27,674 nucleotides of DNA from positions 1-27,674 of the IMG/VR virus record IMGVR_UViG_3300030116_000677. One strand, written 5' to 3'. A program made the translations under genes and the position numbers. Positions 146 through 22,681 of the stretch are shown piece after piece. The DNA is from a virus. Every line of letters begins with the position of its first letter. The stretch's first letter is position 1. Below the pieces are notes generated by a model. That model saw only the letters and a program-made list of their open reading frames with translations. It was not told the origin of the DNA and did no database searches.

Positions 146-592
146 TTACAGGCTGTAAACTTTTTCTTTTTTCTCTTCAGGTATTACCTTTTGAAGATTG
201 ATGGTAAGCATCCCATCACTGAAAGAAGCATCATTTACAACCACGTCTTCGGCAAGAATGAAAGATTTTGAGAAGGGTCGTCTCGCTATGCCTTTATGTA
301 CGATCTTCTTATCGTCTTCCTCTTTAAGTTTCTTGCCGCTAATGGTTAGCTTGTCGGACTCTGTTTTAACTTCCAACTCTTCTTTGTTGAATCCAGCAGT
401 GGCTAACTCAATAGTGTACTTCCCATCTCCATCTTTGATTAAGTTGTGCGGCGGATAAGAACCTGCACTTGGGTATGGAACATTGTCAACTATGCGAACC
501 ATTTCATTAAATAGTTTATCATGACCAATCGCCCAGTTAGAAAAATTAGAAAAGAACGGATGGTTACTGTTTAGACTTGCATGTACACTCAT
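146..592 (-). CDS. hsp20: Small heat shock protein, Hsp20/IbpA family
   Basis: This 148-residue protein is the length of IbpA-type small heat shock proteins. A short N-terminal arm (HPFFSNFSNWAIGHDKLFNE) is followed by an alpha-crystallin domain from about residue 50. The domain holds GIARRPFSKSF, then LAEDVVVNDASFSDGMLTINL, and the protein ends with the IPE motif and a charged tail. Such proteins are ATP-independent holdases that keep unfolding proteins soluble. Small heat shock proteins occur in many marine phages, where they are thought to protect virion or host proteins during infection. The ATG at 590-592 follows AAGGAG by seven bases. It is expressed from its own consensus promoter (651-679) and ends at a terminator, so it looks like a separate transcription unit. 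Confidence 0.95.
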   Translation of the reverse strand: MSVHASLNSNHPFFSNFSNWAIGHDKLFNEMVRIVDNVPYPSAGSYPPHNLIKDGDGKYTIELATAGFNKEELEVKTESDKLTISGKKLKEEDDKKIVHKGIARRPFSKSFILAEDVVVNDASFSDGMLTINLQKVIPEEKKEKVYSL

Positions 593-5032: not shown

Positions 5033-6664
5033 TTAGTGTGTTTCTGCCCAATTATTTCCAACTTTATGATCAGAATCTAAATCACATCTAAAACTAAACT
5101 CTCTTTGTGTCTGGTACATAGCCTCTTTTGTTATCTTAGTGAACCTATTTATGTCTGGTTTTGCTACTTCAAACTGATATTCATCGTGTACAGACGCCAC
5201 TAGTTTTGCATCTAGGCCAGACTTCCTTACTCGTTTATCTATCTCTACAAGCCACTGTTTACAGACAATAGCACCAGCACCTTGAAGTAAAGTATTTAAG
5301 GCTGCATGTTCTGACCTAATCATAAGACGCCTACCATCAAGACCTTTAATACTACCATTCTGTGCTGCTTCTTGCACATTAGATCGTAGTGTGCGTAGTG
5401 CTGGCATGTTAGAAAGAAACTTGGATATTAGCTTCTGTCCCTTGCCGGGACCGCCGCCCACTATTTTACCAATCTTTGCTGGACCTGCACCATAGAGAAA
5501 AGCATAGATAAAAGTCTTTGCCTGATCTCTGTTAGAAAGACCCGCAGCATGTTGATTGGCCGTGTGAACGTCACCTGTGAGAACCTCGTTAGTAAAGTCT
5601 GCATCCTTCATATAATGTGCAAGACATCTAAGTTCAAGTCCACTGGCATCTGTACCAACAAGCTGGTGTGTTTGAGCGTTAGAGACAGTCCATAGTTCTC
5701 TACACTCTTTACCATATGGACTATATACAGCGGGAACCTGTGCCATATTGGGGCTGTGGTGTGCCATGCGTCCTGTGATAGTCTTGAGCGTTAACACTCT
5801 GCCACGAACACGCATGTCCTCTCCGCACTCTTTGATCCATGCCTTGAGAAGTCCTGTTCTTTTCTGTAGAAGAAAATACCTGCTAAACATCTGTGCCTCT
5901 GGCATTTTAATCTTGGATAGGACATCTTCGTTAACAATGACATTGCCTTTATCTGTTAGTTTAGTTGGCTCCCAACCACGCTCCATCAAACGATCAGCTA
6001 TCTGTTTACGACTAGCAATATTAAAAGGTATCTTCTTAGTCTTTGTTTTTAGCTCTACAATCGTAGGCTCAAACTCCTCCTCCGCATGTCGCTCAAGTTC
6101 ATGTTGTTCATCTTCAAGTTTAGCAAGTAATAACTGTGCTTTCATTAGGTCAAAAGCAAAACCATTCTTCTGTTGCTTATCAAGTATGATACGAATATCA
6201 CGCTCAAGATCGTAACACTGATTAGAAAACTTTTTCTTTTCTAGTTCTAAGTTTTGTGCAAGCTTACGTGTTAACTCTACATCACGCTGACAGTACTCCA
6301 GCATAAGAGGAGAGAACTCACTGAAGTCGTGGAAGTCAAGCTTCGCAAAGCCAAGCCTTTCGCCCCATGACTCCAGTGAGTGACCACCCTCCCGCACCGG
6401 ATTAAATAACTGCGACTCAAGCAGTGTGTCTCTCACTTGTATTGGTGAGATAGACGAGCCAGTGAATTTGTTTAGCAGGGGTGCATCAAAGCTAATACCA
6501 TTGTGCATAATAAACTGGTCAATCTTTTTAGACCATTCGCCAAACTCTTTACACTCATCACCTACCCATTTACGTATCTCACCTGTCTCGTAATGTTGTG
6601 CTACTATACAGTATATTCTCTTTGCATTAATAGCATCAGTCTCTATGTCCACTACTGCTTTCAT
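5033..6664 (-). CDS. Family A DNA polymerase with 3'-5' exonuclease domain
   Basis: This 543-residue replicative polymerase has a proofreading domain with Exo I (D6, E8 in DIETD), Exo II (N55, D60 in HNGISFD) and Exo III (Y124, D128 in YCQRD). The polymerase domain has motif A (D339 in GTDASGLELR), motif B/O-helix (R379, K383, Y387, Y391 in RDQAKTFIYAFLYG) and motif C (H493, D494 in VHDEY). Tyr387 aligns with E. coli Pol I Phe762, as in T7. It is about 160 residues shorter than T7 gp5, leaving little room for a thioredoxin-binding loop. There is no 5'-3' exonuclease domain. The start overlaps the upstream nuclease gene by 29 bases and lacks a strong ribosome binding site, suggesting coupling. 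Confidence 0.97.
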   Translation of the reverse strand: MKAVVDIETDAINAKRIYCIVAQHYETGEIRKWVGDECKEFGEWSKKIDQFIMHNGISFDAPLLNKFTGSSISPIQVRDTLLESQLFNPVREGGHSLESWGERLGFAKLDFHDFSEFSPLMLEYCQRDVELTRKLAQNLELEKKKFSNQCYDLERDIRIILDKQQKNGFAFDLMKAQLLLAKLEDEQHELERHAEEEFEPTIVELKTKTKKIPFNIASRKQIADRLMERGWEPTKLTDKGNVIVNEDVLSKIKMPEAQMFSRYFLLQKRTGLLKAWIKECGEDMRVRGRVLTLKTITGRMAHHSPNMAQVPAVYSPYGKECRELWTVSNAQTHQLVGTDASGLELRCLAHYMKDADFTNEVLTGDVHTANQHAAGLSNRDQAKTFIYAFLYGAGPAKIGKIVGGGPGKGQKLISKFLSNMPALRTLRSNVQEAAQNGSIKGLDGRRLMIRSEHAALNTLLQGAGAIVCKQWLVEIDKRVRKSGLDAKLVASVHDEYQFEVAKPDINRFTKITKEAMYQTQREFSFRCDLDSDHKVGNNWAETH

Positions 6665-9839: not shown

Positions 9840-9868
9840 ATTATACTCCAACTAATTGCGAATGTCAA
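9840..9868 (-). promoter_or_regulatory. Perfect consensus promoter inside the lysin 3' end
   Basis: The minus strand reads TTGACA (9868-9863), 17 bases, then TATAAT (9845-9840), a 12-of-12 match at the optimal spacing. It straddles the lysin stop codon. Transcription would start near 9832, downstream of the GTG proposed for the coiled-coil gene. It may therefore mainly serve the genes further on, including primase-helicase. Confidence 0.75.
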
Positions 9869-10322
9869 TATAAAAGATGTGATTACCTACCTGTCCAAGA
9901 GAAATAAAGTCCTCGTCTGATGCCCAGTATGGATGGACATAGGCAGCATGGTAGTGGGTAGCGCCTCCTGTTGTGCCAAGAAGAACACCCTGTAAGGCAA
10001 GCTCTGATGCACTGACAGCTTCTTGATAGGCTAGAACATTAGCTATATTTTCAGGCTTACCATCACACCAATATGAAAACTGACACTTGTTTCGTATTGG
10101 ATTACCCTTCCACTCCTTTGCCTGATGGACAACATCACACACATTGTTGGGATAACGCTCAGAGTCCACCCGTGCAAGAACAACATTAGCTACAGCAAGC
10201 TGTGCTATGAATGGTTCAGACCGTGCTTCAAAGTATACTGCTTCAGCTAAACAAGATAACTCATCAGCTTTTGCAGGTGTTATATATAATATACTTATTA
10301 GTAATATATATAATAGTTTCAT
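9852..10322 (-). CDS. SleB/CwlJ-type cell wall hydrolase with signal peptide
   Basis: This 156-residue protein begins with MKLLYILLISILYITPAKA, a typical cleavable signal peptide ending A-K-A, then DELSCLAEAVYFEARSEP. The mature domain is Hydrolase_2 (SleB-like). LAEAVYFEARSE holds the catalytic Glu, followed by LAVANVVLARVDSERYP, NVCDVV, KCQFSYWCDG and GGATHYHAAYVHPYWA. Such enzymes cut the glycan backbone of peptidoglycan. It is the most likely endolysin, exported by the host Sec system and so possibly not dependent on a holin. It is in the early-arm cluster, not with the head genes. An ATGA overlap links it to the upstream gene. Confidence 0.9.
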   Translation of the reverse strand: MKLLYILLISILYITPAKADELSCLAEAVYFEARSEPFIAQLAVANVVLARVDSERYPNNVCDVVHQAKEWKGNPIRNKCQFSYWCDGKPENIANVLAYQEAVSASELALQGVLLGTTGGATHYHAAYVHPYWASDEDFISLGQVGNHIFYIDIRN

Positions 10323-11308: not shown

Positions 11309-11337
11309 ATTATATCATATAGTGCGTTCATTTGTAA
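11309..11337 (-). promoter_or_regulatory. Weak promoter candidate before the 11073-11300 gene
   Basis: TATAAT (11314-11309) is preceded 17 bases upstream by TTACAA. The -10 is perfect, but the -35 matches only half of the consensus, so activity is uncertain. It overlaps the end of the SET-domain gene. Confidence 0.4.
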
Positions 11338-11648
11338 TAATCCAATGTTAGTTCTTCACCTTCTTCAATATTTTGAAGAGTGAACAGGTTATAAATCTGG
11401 CAGTCGTCCCAATCATGAACTTGACGTAGCTCACAGTTAGGCTCCTCTGTATGGTTTAAATATCCACCAATGGGAGTTCTGATTAGGCCATAGAACATGG
11501 GTACGTTAATATGTGTTGCGCCTAAGTCTGTCTCTGCTGGAATGTCCATCGTGGCGAACACACCTAGCCCCTCTATATCACTTTCTCGTATTGTTATCTC
11601 CTCCGGTAAGGGCTTGTAATAAAAAGGATTGTAATCAGGTAGCATCAT
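11328..11648 (-). CDS. SET-domain protein (putative lysine methyltransferase)
   Basis: The protein has 106 residues from the ATG at 11646-11648, with GAGGA upstream; a start 27 bases further up is less likely. It shows the SET core: EGLGVFATMDIPAETDLG (cofactor-binding GxG and first strand), GGYLNHTEEPNCELRQ (equivalent to the NHSxxPNC pseudoknot motif), FTLQNIEEGEELTLDYYK (ending in the GEELTxDY motif with the catalytic Tyr). SET enzymes move a methyl group from S-adenosylmethionine to a protein lysine. At this size it is a bare domain, with no post-SET zinc site visible. The target in a bacterium or phage is unknown; ribosomal, DNA-binding or virion proteins are possible. Confidence 0.85.
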   Translation of the reverse strand: MMLPDYNPFYYKPLPEEITIRESDIEGLGVFATMDIPAETDLGATHINVPMFYGLIRTPIGGYLNHTEEPNCELRQVHDWDDCQIYNLFTLQNIEEGEELTLDYYK

Positions 11649-11802
11649 TTTCAATGTCCTCAAAGAATGGATCAAATACTAGTAAAGTATGCTCATATTC
11701 TTTAGCAGCCTTCTTAGTTTTGTGGTAGGTGGTTTGCCCATCAGAGTGTTGAGCCTTCCACTTTCTACCTTCTTTAGAAATAATTCTAAAACCTTCAGTC
11801 AT
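11635..11802 (-). CDS. Small hypothetical protein, 55 residues
   Basis: The frame from the ATG at 11800-11802, with AAAGGAA upstream, encodes MTEGFRIISKEGRKWKAQHS followed by DGQTTYHKTKKAAKEYE. A strand-strand-helix pattern with a basic N-terminal half suggests a small nucleic-acid-binding fold. It overlaps the SET gene start by 14 bases and its upstream neighbour by eight. The function is unknown. Confidence 0.65.
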   Translation of the reverse strand: MTEGFRIISKEGRKWKAQHSDGQTTYHKTKKAAKEYEHTLLVFDPFFEDIENDAT

Positions 11803-15188: not shown

Positions 15189-15394
15189 TGGATACCTTGG
15201 ATTTGGAGGGTCACTGGCAACGAAGTTGCTACACGGGGGTAGGCACAAATGCGTACACGCATGTATATATATAAACAACACCCCCGCATACTTAGAAAAA
15301 TCTATGGACCTCTCATCACTGTTGCATAAATACCACGAGGCGGTACTAATTAGCTACTTAATAGTATTTTTTTATTATTTTTTTAATATCTCTA

Positions 15395-15423
15395 TTGTAG
15401 AACTTTACAGTATAGTGTATAAT
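15395..15423 (+). promoter_or_regulatory. Rightward promoter for terminase, leaderless
   Basis: TATAAT (15418-15423) has TTGTAG 17 bases upstream. The -10 is perfect and the -35 matches three of six bases. Only six bases separate the -10 from the proposed terminase ATG, so transcription would begin at or next to the start codon. Confidence 0.55.
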
Positions 15424-15429
15424 ATTACT

Positions 15430-16968
15430 ATGGAGAATTTAAATAGTAACTATATAGACTCATACATCAACCTTCAAGGTTTGTTGTCTCAACAAGTAAA
15501 CAATCAATGTAATGATGACTTCTTGTCTTTCGTAAGATTAATGGCACCATCTATTGTGTCTGACTTTAGGATGGGTCGTCACATTGAAGTTATATCAGAA
15601 AAACTACAACAAGTAGAAAATGGTGAACTAAAAAGACTGATGGTCTTTCTACCACCACGATCTTCTAAGTCTGTTGTCTGTTCTAAGTTGTTCCCTGCAT
15701 GGTACATAGGTAGAAACCCTGAACATGAACTACTGACGATATCTCATAGTGATCAGCTTGCCAGTGACTTTGGTAGATCAGTAAGAGACATAGTGAACAC
15801 AGAAGAGTTCTCTAAGGTATTTCGTGGTGTGGCTTTGCGAAGCGACGTAAGAGCAGCAGGTAAGTGGAAGACAAACCAGAATGGAACCTACTATGCTGCT
15901 GGTGTCCGATCCCAGATTGCAGGTCGAGGCGCACATGTAGCAATCCTAGATGATGCAATGTCAGAGGAGGATGCAATATCCAGTGCAGGTAGGCGTTTCA
16001 TCAAAGAATGGTATCCCGCAGGTCTCAGAACACGTATCATGCCTGACGGGGCCATCGTAATAATTAACACCAGATATCACTATGACGATCTATGTGGCTG
16101 GCTTCTCAAGCAACAGGAGAACATGCCTGACTACGAAACAATACCGTGGGAGGTTGTAAAGATACCTGCATGGGTTGACGAAGATGCAGCAGAGTTATTA
16201 GACTTGCCTGTAGGTAGCAGCTACTTTCCTGAATGGAAACCAGATCATGTACTGAAGGTAGATGAGAATGAGATTAAAGCCAGTAACGGCAGCAGGTATT
16301 GGAATGCCTTGTACATGCAAGACCCCACACCAGAAGAAGGCGGTATCATAAAGAAACGCTGGATCAAAGATTGGGAGTATGGTGATCCGCCTACATGTGA
16401 TTTTATAATACAAACATTTGATACTGCTTTCTCCACAGCAAGCACTGCTGACTACAGCGTGATACAGACATGGGGCATCTTCTACATGTACAATCAGACA
16501 GATGAGGGCTACGAAGACTTTGCCCCTCACCTGATACTGCTAGGTAATATCAAAGGCCGCTTTGAATATCCAGAACTGAGGCGGCTGGCGCAGAGACTGT
16601 ATAACCAACACAGACCTGATGTCTGCATGGTGGAAAAGAAAGCATCAGGTCAATCTCTAATACAGGACATGCGTAGGGGTGGACTACCTGTGATGGAGTA
16701 TCTGCCAGACAGGGACAAAACCTCCAGAGTCTATGCAGCTACTCCCATAATGGAGGCTGGTCGTCTCTGGATACCCAAGGGTAAGAAGTGGGCAGACGAT
16801 CTAATAGAAGAACTGATACGTTTTCCCAACGCTGCACATGATGACCAAGTGGATGCCTTAACGATGGCAATCCACTATATGAAGGACTCATGGCACCTGA
16901 CCCACCCTGATGATCCAGAGTATGATGATGTCCCAAGACAGAAAGTTGCTACATACTGGGATGTATGA
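15430..16968 (+). CDS. terL: Terminase large subunit
   Basis: The protein has 512 residues from the ATG at 15430. An upstream extension of 68 hydrophobic residues is open but runs through the promoter and is unlikely. The ATPase domain shows a variant Walker A, LPPRSSKS (about 74-81), and Walker B VAILDDAMS, with the LLTISHSDQLASDFGRSVRD segment between. The nuclease domain has three acidic motifs: QTFDTAFSTASTADYSVIQT, VEKKASGQSLIQDMRR and FPNAAHDDQVDALTMAIHY. It powers DNA packaging into the prohead and cuts the concatemer. The length is typical. No small subunit is visible next to it. There is no ribosome binding site before the ATG. Confidence 0.96.
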   Translation: MENLNSNYIDSYINLQGLLSQQVNNQCNDDFLSFVRLMAPSIVSDFRMGRHIEVISEKLQQVENGELKRLMVFLPPRSSKSVVCSKLFPAWYIGRNPEHELLTISHSDQLASDFGRSVRDIVNTEEFSKVFRGVALRSDVRAAGKWKTNQNGTYYAAGVRSQIAGRGAHVAILDDAMSEEDAISSAGRRFIKEWYPAGLRTRIMPDGAIVIINTRYHYDDLCGWLLKQQENMPDYETIPWEVVKIPAWVDEDAAELLDLPVGSSYFPEWKPDHVLKVDENEIKASNGSRYWNALYMQDPTPEEGGIIKKRWIKDWEYGDPPTCDFIIQTFDTAFSTASTADYSVIQTWGIFYMYNQTDEGYEDFAPHLILLGNIKGRFEYPELRRLAQRLYNQHRPDVCMVEKKASGQSLIQDMRRGGLPVMEYLPDRDKTSRVYAATPIMEAGRLWIPKGKKWADDLIEELIRFPNAAHDDQVDALTMAIHYMKDSWHLTHPDDPEYDDVPRQKVATYWDV

Positions 16969-16969
16969 T

Positions 16970-16998
16970 TTGGGAAAACAGAAAAAGTATGCTATAAT
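16970..16998 (+). promoter_or_regulatory. Phage late-type promoter A, TTGGGA-17-TATAAT
   Basis: TTGGGA (16970-16975), 17 bases, then TATAAT (16993-16998). It begins within two bases of the terminase stop codon. The layout TGATTTGGGAAA...TATAATAATA recurs at 22683-22711. The cupin ATG lies six bases after the -10. Confidence 0.8.
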
Positions 16999-17004
16999 AA
17001 TAAC

Positions 17005-17619
17005 ATGATTGATTTAGAAAAAAAAGTAAATGAATTAGATAATAAGTTAAATGCTCTTATTTCTGTTCTTCAAAAAAATAAAAAGCCGGAAGTAAAACTT
17101 TTTCCATCAGCTTATATTAAAGATGATCTAGGTTATGAGTTTTATGATGATCTAACTGGATTTATGCGGTGGTACTTTGAAGAATGTCCAAATAAGTTTC
17201 AAGTTCCTTTTGATAATCCACTTTTATTTATTGAGGGACACACTGCCTGTACTTTATTTAGGCATGGACCGTATCAGGTAGAACTTGTTTATATGCAACC
17301 TGATACAGTAACTTATGATCATAATCATCCTGATGTAGATAGCTATGTTGTCTATCTTTATGGCACAAACTTTAGATATAAAGGAAAAGAAGTTCTTAGT
17401 AAACAAGAAGGACATTATGTAGAAAAAAATGGAAAAGCTTCTGCGTATATGAGAAAGATAAGACTGAAGCCAAATACGGTGCATGGTGCAGAGTCTGGTC
17501 CTAATGGAGCATGTTTCTTTTCTGTTCAAAAATGGCTAAGTGGTAAAGCTGGAGAGTCTATTGCTAATAGTTGGAACGGTGAAGAGTTAGGAGAAGAACA
17601 CGCAAAAGGTATTCGGTGA
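17005..17619 (+). CDS. Cupin-like protein, partner of the acyltransferase
   Basis: This 204-residue protein has an N-terminal coiled coil (IDLEKKVNELDNKLNALISV) and then a beta-rich domain with cupin features. YDHNHPDVDSYVVYLYG gives H106 and H108 plus the closing Gly of motif 1. LKPNTVHGAESGPNGACFF gives the Pro and H160 of motif 2. A metal site from these three His is likely. The C-terminal segment reads SVQKWLSGKAGESIANSW, then HAKGIR. Cupins cover enzymes and sugar or small-molecule binders, so no reaction can be named. By eye the codons are much more A/T-rich than in terminase, hinting at a separately acquired pair. It overlaps the next gene by one base (TGATG) and has a dedicated promoter with no ribosome binding site. 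Confidence 0.75.
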   Translation: MIDLEKKVNELDNKLNALISVLQKNKKPEVKLFPSAYIKDDLGYEFYDDLTGFMRWYFEECPNKFQVPFDNPLLFIEGHTACTLFRHGPYQVELVYMQPDTVTYDHNHPDVDSYVVYLYGTNFRYKGKEVLSKQEGHYVEKNGKASAYMRKIRLKPNTVHGAESGPNGACFFSVQKWLSGKAGESIANSWNGEELGEEHAKGIR

Positions 17620-18017
17620 TGACCGAACTAGAAAAAATAATATATACTTTAGGTTTATCTGAGTTACACAGAAGTTGGACGACCACAGATATTATAAATC
17701 GTGTACTACCTCCATTAAAACTTAAACAGTATATTTTTATTTCAAATGAAAAGGTTCCTTTGTTCTATGCTTCATGGGCATTTATGAATCAAGAGTCATC
17801 AGATGCTAGAGAATTTTCAAAAAGAAAAATTCAAATACAAGATTGGAATAATGGACATGTTCCGTGGATTATGGATATTGTTTGTCCTATGGGCGGAACA
17901 GCAGAGGGAATTAAAGAGCTAAAGAAAGTTCCTAGACATCTAGGTGTTAAAGGAAAAATAAAATTCTTTAGAACTAAAAAGGGGAAGAAAGAGTTACATC
18001 ATGTTACATGGCTATAA
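17619..18017 (+). CDS. HlyC-like toxin-activating lysine acyltransferase
   Basis: This 132-residue protein closely matches the HlyC/RtxC family (170 residues in E. coli HlyC). SELHRSW matches SPLHRNW of HlyC, with H17 as the catalytic His23 equivalent. INRVLPPLKLKQYIFI matches the INVLPAIRANQYALL region, and VPLFYASWAFMNQE matches YPVAYCSWANLSLE. IQDWNNGHVPWIMDIVCPMG matches the segment holding Asp92, here D86. The His-Asp spacing is 69 in both. HlyC moves a fatty acyl chain from acyl-ACP to internal lysines of pro-haemolysin. The C-terminus here is shorter. No RTX toxin is in the window, so the substrate is unknown. The gene lies between a cupin and an unknown virion-type protein in the head-gene block. 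Confidence 0.9.
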   Translation: MTELEKIIYTLGLSELHRSWTTTDIINRVLPPLKLKQYIFISNEKVPLFYASWAFMNQESSDAREFSKRKIQIQDWNNGHVPWIMDIVCPMGGTAEGIKELKKVPRHLGVKGKIKFFRTKKGKKELHHVTWL

Positions 18018-19371
18018 AAAATCCAGATACAATATTTATGATAACTTAGAGTTTCTAGGTCTGAACCCGTATGAGCTAAAACATTTTTGTTTTGGTGAGT
18101 CCGGTGACGATGGTGCTGGAGATGATGCCGCCGCCGACTACTATGAGTCTCTTACAAATCCTGAAGCTGTAGCAGCAATGGCAGCAGTAGAAGAGGCTTC
18201 AAGACAGGCAGAAGAAAAAGCATCAGGAAGACAGGCAGCAGAAGAAGCATCTAGAGCGCAAACAGCATCACTAAGTCAAGCACAGAGAGATGCAGCAAAT
18301 CAGATGAGTTTGGCTGATCCTACTCTAGATGTAGCATTTAATCTTGATCCTAGTATAGTTGATCGTGAAAGTTTAAATGAATTACAGCAAAACTATTTTA
18401 ATATGCTTGACGATGTTGCCGAAGTAGACCCCGGCCTTGCTCAAAACTTACTAGATGCAAGAAGTATAAATACTGCTAGATATGGTATTTATAATCCAGA
18501 GGCAATGAATAAACTAGAAAAGCGAGGACTTAAAACTTTTGGTCTTGGTTATAGAGGAAGATTTGAAGCACTAAGCCCCGGAGGAGGTTTATCAAGAGAG
18601 GACTATGATCCTAACTCTTTAACAGGTGCTGGCACAGATGAAGCAAGTACTAATAAAGCTTTATTTGCAGAGTTTGCTAAAGAAAATCCTAGCCTCACAA
18701 CAGTAGAAGCTTTAACTGAATATAACGCTATGACTAATCCAGATAGTCAACTTTCAATATCAGATGTGCAGTCTATGGGCTTTGACCTTAATGCTGCTGT
18801 AGGACCACAAGCAGATTTTAGAGAAGCAGCGGCACAAAAGGGATTAGCACAAGGTATTGGTTTTCTCGCTCAAACAGCAGTAACTGGAAGTCCTATTGGT
18901 GTGATAAGTGATATTGCATTGTCAGGAACTGGTAAGGGTGTTTTGGGTCATACAATAGATGCAGTTGAAAAAGCAACAGGTTTTGAACTACCAGAGTTGC
19001 CTGATATTGGTATTAGTATTCCATCTTATCAAGAAACAGCAGTTGATTTTTTTGGTCCTGCACAAGACCTAATGGACCCCTCTTCTTTTGGTATAAGTCC
19101 AAGTTCAGCAACTGGAGTGGCTGCTCCAACAGATGCAGATATAGGATTTACTGGACCCACTGATGTTTACGATTATGGATTTGATGGTCCTGAACAGATA
19201 GCACCACCGCCTGTAGAAAAACCAGTTATAAAAGAAAAAGAAGAAGTTATTGAAACACCCGCTCCGTCTTTTCCTGTTAGAGATACAACACCACCATCAA
19301 GAATAAGTCGCATAGCAAATATTTATAACATTAGCGAAGATGCCGCTAAAAGAATGTTAGGAGTTGCATGA
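18001..19371 (+). CDS. Ala-rich low-complexity protein, probable virion component
   Basis: The protein has 456 residues. The start overlaps the acyltransferase gene by 17 bases and has AAGAAAGAG upstream. After a Tyr/Asn-rich start (MLHGYKKSRYNIYDNLEFLG) come an acidic Gly/Ala patch (GDDGAGDDAAADYY), a Lys/Glu/Ala coiled-coil-like segment (about 60-95) and a long Ala/Gly/Ser region. Next is a Pro-rich linker (APPPVEKPVIKEKEEVIETP), then a short helical end. A mid-region stretch, LAQGIGFLAQTAVTGSPIGV, is moderately hydrophobic. Position between terminase and portal, and composition, suggest an internal or ejection protein. As the nearest downstream gene it is one possible substrate of the acyltransferase, but nothing proves that. 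Confidence 0.75.
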   Translation: MLHGYKKSRYNIYDNLEFLGLNPYELKHFCFGESGDDGAGDDAAADYYESLTNPEAVAAMAAVEEASRQAEEKASGRQAAEEASRAQTASLSQAQRDAANQMSLADPTLDVAFNLDPSIVDRESLNELQQNYFNMLDDVAEVDPGLAQNLLDARSINTARYGIYNPEAMNKLEKRGLKTFGLGYRGRFEALSPGGGLSREDYDPNSLTGAGTDEASTNKALFAEFAKENPSLTTVEALTEYNAMTNPDSQLSISDVQSMGFDLNAAVGPQADFREAAAQKGLAQGIGFLAQTAVTGSPIGVISDIALSGTGKGVLGHTIDAVEKATGFELPELPDIGISIPSYQETAVDFFGPAQDLMDPSSFGISPSSATGVAAPTDADIGFTGPTDVYDYGFDGPEQIAPPPVEKPVIKEKEEVIETPAPSFPVRDTTPPSRISRIANIYNISEDAAKRMLGVA

Positions 19372-21887
19372 TGGCAACAGAACGTAATCCTTTTGATCGT
19401 ATACCAGAACAAGAAACAAATGTAGTTCCTCTTGCTCCTGAAACAGAAGATATTGATGCTACTTTTGAGGTTGCAGAAGATGGTGGTGTTATTGTAGACT
19501 TCTCTGATAATATAGAGATGGAAGCCTCTGAAGATATTGCTGAATGGTATGGCAATATGATAGAGAATATGGATGAAGATGATCTAGAAGAAATAGCAGC
19601 AAACGTAATAGAAAACTTTGAGGCTGATAAAGATTCTCGTTCAGAGTGGGAGTCTATGTTTGAGCGTGGTTTTGATCTGTTAGGTCTAAAGCTAGAGCAA
19701 GGGTCTGAACCTTTTCAAGGTGCGTGTACTGCTGTGCATCCTCTGTTAATTGAATCAGCAGTTAAGTTTCAATCTAAAGCATCTGGAGAGTTGTTTCCCG
19801 CTAATGGTCCTGTTAAAGCTAGGATCATGGGTAAGTCAACCACTGAAAAAGAATTACAAGCTAACCGTGTTCAGAACTTCATGAACTATCAACTTACTGA
19901 ACAGATGCCGGAATACTTTGACGAGTTTGAAAGAATGCTGTTCCATTTACCATTGATTGGTTCTGCGTTTAAAAAGCTGTACTATGATGCCACCGTGAAG
20001 CGTCCTAAGTCAGAGTTTATTCCTATTGATCAGTTCTATGTGTCTTACTATGCAACTGACCTTTCCAATGCAGATCGTTATACGCATGTGATCTATCGCA
20101 GTCCAGTAGAATTACAAAGAGATATGAGGGCTGGTGTATATGGAGATATTGAGCTAGGCTCTCCTGCTTCCTATCCCACCACCTCCTTCAGTGAGAAGAT
20201 GGATACAATCATTGGTTTGTCTCCTATGTCAGACCATGACCCACAGTATGTTCTACTAGAGCAACACTGCTATCTTAATATTGAAGATGAAGAAGAAGCC
20301 TGTCCGTACATTGTAACTGTTGAGCAACAGTCCAGACAGGTGCTGAGTATCCGTAGAAACTACAAGCAAGATGACCCGAACAAAGAAAAAATAAATCACT
20401 TTGTACATTATAGATTTGTTCCCGGCTTTGGTTTTTATGGCCTAGGTCTTATACACTTCCTTGGTAATCTAACAATGAGTGCAACGGCAGCTATGCGTTC
20501 CCTCATAGATGCTGGACAGTTTGCCAATTTACCGGGGGGATTTAAGGCCAAGGGAGTCAGGATGGTTGGTGACAATGATCCTATAGCTCCCGGCGAGTTC
20601 AAGGAGGTTGAAGCAACTGGTGTAGATTTATCAAAGGCTATTATTCCCCTTCCCTACAAAGAGCCTTCCTCTACTCTATTCCAAATGCTGAACTTCGTAG
20701 CTACTGCTGGTCAGAAGTTTGCGGACAGCACAGAGCAAGTTATCTCTGATGCTGCCTCCTATGGACCCGTTGGCACCACTATGGCTTTGCTTGAAGCAAG
20801 CAGTAAATTCTTCACAGCAATTCATAAGCGACTGCATAAGTCTCAGAAAGATGAGTTCCGTATTCTTGCTCGTATTGACTATGACTATCTTCCTAGTGAG
20901 TATCCGTATGATGTTCCTTACGAAGATCGTAGTATCTTCAAGAATGACTTTGATGGTCGCATAGATATTATTCCTGTATCTGATCCTAATATTCCTAGTA
21001 ACGCACATCGTATGATGATGGCAAACATGGCACTACAGATGGCGCAGCAATCACCACCGGGTATGTTTAATCTGGAAGCCCTAAATAGAACTATTCTTAA
21101 TGCCTCTAACATGCCTAACGTAGATGAGATACTTCCACCAAAGATTGAGCCTCAAGCTCTTGATCCAGTATCTGATATTATGGCAGCGACGAAAGGCATA
21201 CCTATTGCAGCCTTTCCCGGTCAGAATCATGATGCACATATGCAGGTAAAGATGGCATATCTTCAAGATCCGATGAATGGTGCTAATCCAATTATGCAAC
21301 GTATTACTCCAATACTTCAAGCTAATATTCAAGAACACTCTGTGATGAAATACCAAGAACAAATGGTTGGTATTTCTGAAGAGCTTATGCAACAGGCTCC
21401 TGATCAGGCTGGTAATCCCGCTGTGATTGAGATGGCAATGGCACAAGCTGCACAGCAGGTGATGAACGCCAATCAAGCAATGGGTCAAGCACAGTCACCT
21501 GAACAACAGCTTGTTGCTCTTGAACAGGCAAAGGTTGAGCTAGAAAAGCAGAAGCTTCAGTCTGATACAGTAACAGATGCAGCAGAGCTTGAGATTAAAA
21601 ACAAAGAACTTGAGATTAAAGAGACTGCACAGATTATTGAAATGCTTAAAGCATCTGCAACAGCTAACTCAAGAGAAGCACAATCTCAACTTAATCGTGA
21701 ATCTAAAGAAGCAATGAAAGAAGCTGAACTAGCTACACGTAAAGAAATTGAAGAGGCAAAGATTGCCGCTGATATGTTAAGAAAACAAATGGACGATGAT
21801 AAAGAAATGGACATGGCTGCATTAGAAAATCTTACGCAGTTTGCTAGTGAACAAATGAAGGAGACTAACAATGATGAAGAAAGGTAA
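19371..21887 (+). CDS. Portal protein, podovirus (P22/SU10-like) type
   Basis: The protein has 838 residues from the second of two adjacent ATGs, which is better spaced from AGGAG than the one at 19368. The N-terminus is acidic. The core has EWESMFERGFDLLGLKLEQ, then FQGACTAVHPLLIESAVKFQ and SKASGELFPANGPVKARIMG. The clip and wing regions include HYRFVPGFGFYGLGLIHFLG and a stem-type SSTLFQMLNFVATAGQKFAD. The last 200 residues are Gln-, Glu- and Ala-rich helices (ELEIKNKELEIKETAQIIEM, then KEAMKEAELATRKEIEEAKI), which suit the long C-terminal barrel of P22-type portals. It forms the dodecameric DNA gate where packaging and tail assembly meet. The length is well above siphovirus portals and fits large podovirus ones. 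Confidence 0.93.
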   Translation: MATERNPFDRIPEQETNVVPLAPETEDIDATFEVAEDGGVIVDFSDNIEMEASEDIAEWYGNMIENMDEDDLEEIAANVIENFEADKDSRSEWESMFERGFDLLGLKLEQGSEPFQGACTAVHPLLIESAVKFQSKASGELFPANGPVKARIMGKSTTEKELQANRVQNFMNYQLTEQMPEYFDEFERMLFHLPLIGSAFKKLYYDATVKRPKSEFIPIDQFYVSYYATDLSNADRYTHVIYRSPVELQRDMRAGVYGDIELGSPASYPTTSFSEKMDTIIGLSPMSDHDPQYVLLEQHCYLNIEDEEEACPYIVTVEQQSRQVLSIRRNYKQDDPNKEKINHFVHYRFVPGFGFYGLGLIHFLGNLTMSATAAMRSLIDAGQFANLPGGFKAKGVRMVGDNDPIAPGEFKEVEATGVDLSKAIIPLPYKEPSSTLFQMLNFVATAGQKFADSTEQVISDAASYGPVGTTMALLEASSKFFTAIHKRLHKSQKDEFRILARIDYDYLPSEYPYDVPYEDRSIFKNDFDGRIDIIPVSDPNIPSNAHRMMMANMALQMAQQSPPGMFNLEALNRTILNASNMPNVDEILPPKIEPQALDPVSDIMAATKGIPIAAFPGQNHDAHMQVKMAYLQDPMNGANPIMQRITPILQANIQEHSVMKYQEQMVGISEELMQQAPDQAGNPAVIEMAMAQAAQQVMNANQAMGQAQSPEQQLVALEQAKVELEKQKLQSDTVTDAAELEIKNKELEIKETAQIIEMLKASATANSREAQSQLNRESKEAMKEAELATRKEIEEAKIAADMLRKQMDDDKEMDMAALENLTQFASEQMKETNNDEER

Positions 21888-22255: not shown

Positions 22256-22681
22256 ATGCAACAAGTAGGTTTAGGTGGCGCACTAAAAAATGATTTGTGG
22301 ATAACTGAGGATGACGCCCCCGATCCCAGCCCACTACCCACTCTACCGGGATTTCACGTTTTGGTGCGCCCCGTTTCAGTAAAGAGTGTAACAAAAGGCG
22401 GTATCTTTATACCGGATTCAACTAAAGATGATATGTCTTATCTCACCACTGTCGCACAGGTTCTAGCGTTAGGAGACTTGGCATACATGGATAAAGAAAA
22501 GTTCCCAGCAGGAGCATGGTGTAACATAGGTGACTATGTATGTTATGGCAAACATGCAGGAACTAAATTATTTTACAAAGGTGTACGTCTTATACTTTTA
22601 TTTGATGATCAAATTATAATGAAAGTAGAGGAGCCTAAAGACCTTGATCCAACTTTTAATTTAGGAAAAGGCTCTAGTTGA
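22256..22681 (+). CDS. groES: GroES-like co-chaperonin
   Basis: This 141-residue protein has a GroES-like beta barrel from about residue 27 on. LPGFHVLVRPVSVKSVTKGG then IFIPDS is the first strand and the entry to the mobile loop. VAQVLALGDLAY and PAGAWCNIGDYVCYGKHAGT match the GroES middle. VRLILLFDDQIIMKVEE is the final strand. The mobile loop region (about 45-60) is present. An N-terminal extension of about 26 residues, with a Pro/Asp turn, is unlike bacterial GroES. Such phage cochaperonins, like T4 gp31, replace GroES and adapt GroEL for large capsid proteins. It sits between portal and scaffold, close to the capsid gene, as expected for a capsid-folding role. Confidence 0.85.
   Translation: MQQVGLGGALKNDLWITEDDAPDPSPLPTLPGFHVLVRPVSVKSVTKGGIFIPDSTKDDMSYLTTVAQVLALGDLAYMDKEKFPAGAWCNIGDYVCYGKHAGTKLFYKGVRLILLFDDQIIMKVEEPKDLDPTFNLGKGSS

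What the first reader, a model, noticed from the sequence alone, without database searches (positions are those of the whole stretch)
17005..18017. A HlyC-like lysine acyltransferase paired with a cupin inside a phage head-gene block
The 17619-18017 gene keeps the HlyC catalytic His and Asp with identical 69-residue spacing (H17/D86 versus H23/D92), plus the LHR-W, VLP, A/CSW and DW-G motifs. HlyC enzymes are known for acylating RTX toxins in Gram-negative pathogens. Here no RTX toxin is in view. The gene is fused by a TGATG overlap to a cupin-like gene, the pair has its own promoter, and by eye its base composition is more A/T-rich than terminase. Inference: a phage-encoded protein fatty-acylation module, perhaps making an ejection, internal or tail protein membrane-active during genome entry, or modifying a host protein.
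Basis: partly seen in the sequence, partly recalled or inferred. Interest (0 to 1): 0.88.

Follow-up and report, generated by a model that had tools for sequence, protein, structure and literature searches.

The report
Phage HlyC-like acyltransferase and neighbour gene
A phage carries an enzyme related to those that attach fatty acids to bacterial toxins, usually found overlapping the start of another phage gene, which suggests that some viruses of ocean bacteria may put fatty chains on their own proteins.

Summary
The gene at 17619-18017 belongs to PF02794/HlyC (E 4.9e-20). Its model (pLDDT 86.7) matches ApxC (4WHN) best in the PDB. His17/Asp86 keep ApxC's 69-residue spacing. No RTX-type repeat was found in the 53-kb record.

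Two things change. The cupin is optional: 15 of 34 readable group-A loci have it, 19 lack it. The constant partner is downstream: HlyC overlaps the next gene in 96 of 100 readable loci. In the window's group that gene (18001-19371) has a conserved 31-residue head, a hypervariable acidic body and one invariant head lysine, K7. HlyC and head vary together (partial r 0.85, 0 of 5000 permutations); HlyC and body hardly do (0.16, 547 of 5000). HlyC also precedes tail-tip gpJ or a lysine-rich protein in isolated pelagiphages.

Best reading: a phage HlyC that fatty-acylates the next gene's product, here at K7, as CdiC does for CdiA. Activity, substrate and virion location are inferred, and linkage may explain part of the covariation. 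Phage HlyC genes are already annotated in GenBank; the partner logic is what looks new.

The parts
15226..16968 (+). terminase large subunit (ORF from TTG; true start probably further in)
   Evidence: PF17289 E 6.6e-15, phrog_38 E 1.3e-103
16970..16998 (+). promoter-like site, TTGGGA - 17 nt - TATAAT with TG before the -10
   Evidence: scan count not above chance; -10 core present in 15 of 15 loci printed, whether the first gene is the cupin or HlyC
17005..17619 (+). cupin-like protein, 204 aa; optional accessory gene
   Evidence: sub-threshold PF16867 E 0.011; present in 15, absent in 19 of 34 readable group-A loci; dN/dS 0.007-0.049 in 5 comparisons
17619..18017 (+). HlyC-like (PF02794) acyltransferase, 132 aa, His17/Asp86
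   Evidence: PF02794 E 4.9e-20; model pLDDT 86.7; Foldseek top hits 4WHN ApxC E 1.2e-8; spacing 69; dN/dS 0.10-0.22 in 7 comparisons
18001..18017 (+). 17-nt overlap of the HlyC gene end with the start of the downstream gene
   Evidence: overlap (17 or 26 nt) in 36 of 36 group-A loci
18001..19371 (+). downstream partner, 456 aa: conserved head, hypervariable acidic body (pI 4.28), C-terminal helix motif; proposed substrate
   Evidence: no significant Pfam, PHROG or NCBIfam family
18001..18093 (+). conserved N-terminal head (31 residues, MLHGYKKSRYNIYDNLEFLGLNPYELKHFCF)
   Evidence: co-varies with HlyC, partial r 0.85, residues 7-31 partial r 0.80
18019..18021 (+). codon of Lys7, the only invariant lysine of the head (aligned by eye); proposed acylation site
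   Evidence: the Lys6 position is R, N or S in L133-L140
18088..18090 (+). codon of Cys30, the only cysteine of this protein; a Cys at this place in all heads listed
19368..21887 (+). portal protein
   Evidence: phrog_1216 E 1.9e-37; 42.7% to HTVC027P gp43 over 75%

Best explanation
The gene at 17619-18017 encodes an acyl-ACP:protein lysine acyltransferase of the HlyC/TAAT fold, from a group that holds only phage copies in the tree built here. It is probably transcribed from its own promoter together with the gene it overlaps. Its most likely substrate is the product of that next gene (18001-19371), acylated in the conserved N-terminal head, probably on Lys7. The fatty chain would make this packaging-region protein membrane-active, most simply during genome entry, as an internal or ejected virion protein. 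This is the logic of hlyC-hlyA and cdiC-cdiA applied to a phage protein. In isolated pelagiphages the same kind of enzyme sits before tail-tip gpJ or a lysine-rich amphipathic protein. Shown: family, fold, dyad, overlap, purifying selection, co-inheritance of HlyC and head. Inferred: activity, acyl chain, substrate, site, virion location and role in entry.
For: PF02794 E 4.9e-20; ApxC is the top fold hit and best PDB profile hit, E 4e-21; dyad spacing identical. Purifying selection, dN/dS 0.10-0.22 in 7 comparisons. HlyC overlaps the next gene in 96 of 100 loci with a readable downstream ORF, across different downstream families (near copies counted, start codons chosen by script or by eye). 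In the head scan 33 of 33 loci with upstream DNA have HlyC directly upstream; 2 of 35 start at the head. HlyC and head distances: r 0.86, partial 0.85 given terminase and portal, 0 of 5000 permutations; body partial 0.16 (547 of 5000), C-terminus 0.17 (577 of 5000). Head residues 7-31, outside the overlap: partial 0.80, 0 of 5000; last 60 residues of terminase given portal -0.13, 3774 of 5000 (terminase is the direct neighbour in 9 of the 14 loci). L138 against window: terminase and portal 6% different, HlyC 58%, head 43%. Lys7 is the one invariant head lysine. Unlinked case: of 50,697 phage records three match the HTVC115P partner gp45 at E 1e-3 or better; all three also hold HlyC, and in HTVC103P and HTVC104P the two genes lie about 18 kb apart. 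Precedent: CdiC acylates Lys1467, in a Lys-Lys pair, of its neighbour CdiA and promotes target-cell binding (PMC8510554, passages read).
Against: No biochemical data. Linkage alone can carry the head along with an overlapping HlyC; the 30 residues after the head also correlate with HlyC (partial 0.39, 2 of 5000) and the next 30 less (0.25, 228 of 5000), a decay that fits linkage. HlyC and terminase correlate in raw distance (r 0.46). The test rests on 14 distinct loci of about six lineages. The downstream protein has no significant family match and no virion evidence. In the gpJ group the hydrophobic N-terminus does not depend on HlyC: HTVC202P has no PF02794 match yet its gpJ starts in the same way, and HTVC112P gpJ has no lysine in its first 40 residues. 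The catalytic His is Tyr in 5 of 18 readable group-A HlyCs and Tyr or Trp in all 51 of classes B-E; Asp is kept in 13 of 30 class-C and 0 of 5 class-D copies. In HTVC103P/104P HlyC lies in the early region beside a 107-aa protein.
Confidence: 0.46

Rival explanations
1. HlyC is an active lysine acyltransferase, but its target is another virion protein or a host envelope protein; the head travels with it only because the genes overlap and recombine as one block.
For: Overlap forces some co-inheritance; correlation decays with distance into the body and is still significant in the first 30 residues after the head. HTVC103P and HTVC104P keep HlyC in the early region. HTVC202P gpJ has the same N-terminal type without HlyC.
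Against: Head residues outside the overlap co-vary with HlyC (partial r 0.80) while the upstream neighbour terminase does not beyond portal (-0.13); the head stays conserved while the body is hardly alignable; gp45-type partners co-occur with HlyC unlinked in two phages.
Confidence: 0.28
2. Cupin and HlyC form one two-step tailoring module, the cupin oxidising or otherwise preparing the residue or lipid that HlyC uses.
For: The cupin is under very strong purifying selection, dN/dS 0.007-0.049.
Against: 19 of 34 readable loci have HlyC and head but no cupin at that place. Whether a cupin lies elsewhere in those genomes was not tested. The fold is unconfirmed.
Confidence: 0.1
3. The protein keeps the fold but no longer attaches fatty acids: a structural or assembly factor, or an acyltransferase with a short acyl chain.
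For: His is Tyr in sister lineages in the same gene position; a GNAT acetyltransferase (PF00583) takes the slot before gpJ in phage DSL-LC06.
Against: The window copy keeps both dyad residues; Asp is kept in 19 of 19 distinct group-A sequences. His-to-Ala variants of CdiC and ApxC keep partial activity, and in the direct-attack model His only protonates the leaving group (PMC8510554 passages), a job Tyr could do (inference).
Confidence: 0.1
4. The Cys at position 30, not Lys7, is the acylated residue, or the head is a capsid-targeting tag unrelated to acylation.
For: The head cysteine is present in all heads listed and is the only cysteine in 9 of the 12 proteins examined.
Against: The HlyC-type enzymes described in PMC8510554 modify lysine (passages); Lys7 is equally invariant.
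Confidence: 0.06

Closest known systems
ApxC / HlyC toxin-activating acyltransferases (PF02794)
   Same: Profile, fold and His-Asp dyad with identical spacing; gene directly upstream of a larger protein (the hlyC-hlyA order is recalled; 6 of 11 bacterial relatives found here have an RTX-repeat gene downstream).
   Different: No RTX-type repeat found in the phage record; 132 aa; phage classes A-E form one group without bacterial rows, 96/90 support.
CdiC of class IV CDI systems (PMC8510554)
   Same: HlyC-type enzyme acting on a non-RTX neighbour, on a lysine of a Lys-Lys pair, promoting contact with a target cell (passages).
   Different: CdiA is a large exoprotein; here the neighbour is a 456-aa acidic protein beside the portal gene.
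Annotated HlyC genes of pelagiphages HTVC026P, 103P, 104P, 111P, 112P, 115P and Roseobacter phage CRP-235
   Same: Annotated as toxin-activating lysine-acyltransferase or RTX toxin acyltransferase; five of the seven lie directly before a gpJ-like or other long gene.
   Different: The six pelagiphage copies lack the catalytic His (Tyr or Trp); the window copy keeps it, and CRP-235 keeps a His by eye. Downstream partners differ: gpJ, lysine-rich gp45, a 491-aa protein (CRP-235), or an early gene (103P, 104P).

Membership tests
HlyC / toxin-activating lysine acyltransferase (PF02794) | Profile score above the curated cut-off | tested here: met
   72.2 bits, cut-off 25
HlyC / toxin-activating lysine acyltransferase (PF02794) | GNAT-like fold as in ApxC | tested here: met
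   model pLDDT 86.7; 4WHN E 1.2e-8, prob 1.00, TMq 0.75
HlyC / toxin-activating lysine acyltransferase (PF02794) | Catalytic His-Asp dyad at conserved spacing | tested here: met
   His17/Asp86 align with the ApxC dyad, spacing 69; the distance between the residues in the model was not measured
HlyC / toxin-activating lysine acyltransferase (PF02794) | Adjacent RTX protoxin | tested here: not met
   0 RTX-like nonapeptides in six frames of the record; control locus L142 gives 31
HlyC / toxin-activating lysine acyltransferase (PF02794) | Acyl-ACP-dependent fatty acylation of a lysine | not testable with these tools
   needs biochemistry
CdiC-type acyltransferase of CDI systems | Adjacent CdiA-type exoprotein | tested here: not met
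   downstream protein is 456 aa with no significant family match
Cupin superfamily (gene 17005-17619) | Profile or fold match to a cupin | tested here: inconclusive
   PF16867 E 0.011, below cut-off; model pLDDT 40; no PDB profile hit

The most novel reading that the evidence does not exclude
Phages of several architectures, seawater pelagiphages among them, share a phage-only HlyC group whose job is to lipidate virion proteins (a packaging-region protein, a lysine-rich ejection-type protein, the gpJ tail tip), so that fatty-acylated virions are common in the sea; within the group the catalytic His was replaced by Tyr, perhaps twice, as a swap of general acid.
Probability: 0.35. Interest if true: 0.85.

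Novelty: new variant of a known kind. Interest (0 to 1): 0.64.

Why it matters
None of eight searches of the paper library (listings seen) pointed to a paper on HlyC-type acylation of a phage protein, although GenBank entries carry the annotation. If true, a tailed phage would use enzymatic lipidation to act on a membrane. That would bear on how pelagiphages, described as ubiquitous and highly abundant (PMC10504331, abstract start in the listing), deliver DNA, and would give HlyC-type enzymes a further class of substrate after RTX toxins and CdiA. It names one protein, one lysine and one mass-spectrometry experiment.

Tried and rejected
Cupin as obligate partner: rejected, absent in 19 of 34 readable loci. 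Cupin structure: model unusable, not searched further. N-terminal Met-Gly or lysine-rich hydrophobic start of gpJ as a HlyC-dependent target signal: rejected, since HTVC202P, without a PF02794 match, has the same type of start, and HTVC112P gpJ has no lysine in its first 40 residues. A second copy of the head motif in the same record: not found with three short patterns; the one other match, at 6650 on the + strand, lies outside the genes of this block. HlyC-less relatives with the head: none among the 33 head loci with upstream DNA; the 456-aa protein has no tblastn match in the phage records, which include HTVC023P and HTVC027P, two portal relatives without a PF02794 match. Literature: eight searches; CdiC was the only informative paper (passages). 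PMC7029224 matched only in its reference list. The other papers were seen as listings only.

Dropped rows: L032 (30-residue fragment); re-fetches of the same contigs under new ids; L128 and L141 (head at contig edge). In one search three loci end near the HlyC gene (L075, L084, L108) and L079 has a broken HlyC frame, so its gap of 96 is an artefact. In that script class C is the remainder class; 8 of the 43 C and D partners were checked by PHROG and all 8 match gpJ or tail-fiber families. One search used 14 distinct of 28 usable loci out of 34 listed. Near copies are included in locus counts. The habitat of the metagenome contigs was not looked up.

Full report
What is there. The window is part of a 53,229-base virus record. 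On the plus strand terminase (15226-16968) is followed by a promoter-like site, a cupin-like gene (17005-17619), the HlyC-like gene (17619-18017), a 456-aa gene (18001-19371), the portal gene (19368-21887), a GroES-like gene and the major capsid gene. The HlyC gene scores PF02794 at E 4.9e-20 and PHROG 20210, of unknown function. It is the only PF02794 match in the record.

Fold and active site. A model built from 32 phage sequences has mean pLDDT 86.7 and pTM 0.81. Foldseek against the PDB puts three chains of 4WHN, the ApxC acyltransferase, first at E 1.2e-8, 2.4e-8 and 1.4e-7; the next hit is at E 0.08. A profile of 14 relatives finds 4whn_A at E 4e-21, the next chain at 0.25. His17 and Asp86 align with the ApxC dyad at the same 69-residue spacing. 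In BFVD the best match is a phage protein already named HlyC. dN/dS is 0.10-0.22 against seven relatives, so the gene is under purifying selection.

The cupin is not the constant partner. Of 36 loci of the window's group (A), window and near copies included, 15 have the cupin directly before HlyC, 19 have terminase directly before HlyC, and 2 are cut off. The T(A/G)TG(C/T)TATAAT element sits after terminase in 15 of 15 loci printed (16 asked), whichever gene comes first. The cupin looks like an optional addition to this operon.

The downstream gene is. In 100 loci with a readable downstream ORF, HlyC overlaps the next gene in 96 and abuts it in one; gaps of 12, 60 and 96 nt make the rest, the last an artefact of a broken frame (near copies included, start codons chosen by script or by eye). 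The next gene falls into classes: the head protein (A, 36 loci); a lysine-rich amphipathic protein with a hydrophobic segment as in HTVC115P gp45 (B, 16); gpJ-like tail-tip proteins (C and D, 37 plus 6; 8 of the 43 checked by PHROG, all 8 matching); a 107-aa early protein (E, 4); a 1928-aa protein (F, 1).

The head. In the window's group the downstream protein starts with a conserved stretch, MLHGYKKSRYNIYDNLEFLGLNPYELKHFCF in the window. The rest of the protein (12 members examined: 349-790 aa in all, pI 4.05-4.36) differs strongly in sequence and length even between phages with 85-99% identical HlyC, and most members end in an IYG-type helix motif. Aligned by eye, Lys7 is the only invariant lysine of the heads; the Lys6 position is Arg, Asn or Ser in L133-L140. 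A Cys at position 30 is also constant. In the head scan 33 of 33 loci with upstream DNA have HlyC directly upstream; 2 of the 35 begin at the head.

HlyC and head move together. Over 14 distinct loci the pairwise distances of HlyC and head correlate at 0.86, and at 0.85 after terminase and portal distances are removed (0 of 5000 permutations). Body and C-terminus give partial 0.16 and 0.17 (547 and 577 of 5000). Outside the overlapping codons head residues 7-31 give 0.80 (0 of 5000); the next 30 residues 0.39 (2 of 5000), the 30 after that 0.25 (228 of 5000). The last 60 residues of terminase, the direct upstream neighbour in 9 of the 14 loci, give -0.13 given portal (3774 of 5000); the raw terminase correlation is 0.40-0.46. 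L138 differs from the window by 6% in terminase and in portal but by 58% in HlyC and 43% in head; from L137 it differs by 21% in HlyC and 13% in head but by 24% and 31% in terminase and portal. HlyC and head thus behave as a cassette exchanged between phages. Linkage by overlap can explain part of this, and the decay behind the head fits it; the asymmetry with terminase is what linkage alone does not predict, though terminase may simply be more constrained. The sample is small, about six lineages.

Other phages. The tblastn searches find seven isolated phages with HlyC: pelagiphages HTVC026P, 103P, 104P, 111P, 112P, 115P and Roseobacter phage CRP-235; CRP-235 scores PF02794 E 1.6e-15. In 026P, 111P and 112P HlyC lies directly before a gpJ-like tail gene (PHROG checked for 026P and 112P). 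Relatives have there nothing (HTVC202P), a DUF6950 protein (CRP-406, CRP-823, CRP-6) or a GNAT acetyltransferase (DSL-LC06). In HTVC115P it lies before gp45. At E 1e-3 relatives of gp45 occur in three records, all HlyC-bearing, and in HTVC103P and HTVC104P the two genes are about 18 kb apart: association without adjacency, in three related records. Against this, HTVC202P has no PF02794 match yet the same type of gpJ start.

Evolution. In a 45-row tree (rooted at the midpoint for drawing, long branches flagged) the phage classes A-E form one group of 35 rows (96/90) without bacterial rows, and class A a group within it (99/99). L051 (class F) falls outside, near bacterial rows. Of 11 bacterial relatives found, 6 have RTX-repeat proteins downstream in the stretch read. 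Among 73 distinct phage HlyCs the His position is H in 14, Y in 54, W in 4 and unreadable in 1; the Asp position is D in 49, S in 14, E in 7, A in 2, Q in 1. Read by eye on the tree, His was lost at least twice, or lost once and regained. Tyr is a plausible replacement under the direct-attack model reported in PMC8510554, where His protonates the leaving thiolate; that Tyr does this in GNAT enzymes is recalled.

Interpretation. The best-supported reading is a lysine acyltransferase acting on the product of the gene it overlaps, here most likely at Lys7, with CdiC-CdiA as closest functional precedent. Enzyme activity, acyl donor, site, virion location of the 456-aa protein and the role in entry are inferences. 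The host is unknown; the nearest named-host portal relatives infect SAR11 and roseobacters at about 40-43% identity.

Noticed in passing
window 18001-19371 and the downstream genes of L003, L010, L013, L016, L137: The partner gene keeps its 5' end and mostly its 3' end but has a hardly alignable acidic middle between close relatives: a hypervariable packaging-region protein.
   Followed up: partly
window 11328-11675 (-): Small SET-domain protein (PF00856 E 1e-10), a domain known from lysine methyltransferases (recalled).
   Followed up: no
window 146-592 (-) and 22256-22681 (+): The phage carries both an Hsp20 chaperone (PF00011 E 8.5e-18) and a GroES-like gene (PF00166 E 1.4e-8).
   Followed up: no
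L159 1887-2372 (phage DSL-LC06): A GNAT acetyltransferase (PF00583) occupies the slot directly before the gpJ-like gene that HlyC holds in HTVC026P, 111P and 112P.
   Followed up: partly
L153 2886-3167 (record 30486-30767): Short basic protein whose printed start repeats units like KSKGGTVRRMGGGKTTKY, in the late region.
   Followed up: no
L161 5398-6873 (Roseobacter phage CRP-235): HlyC is followed after 1 nt by a 491-aa protein that starts MGGGGG, a further downstream class.
   Followed up: partly
window 9852-10322 (-): Cell wall hydrolase (PF07486 E 3.8e-24) on the strand of the replication genes.
   Followed up: no
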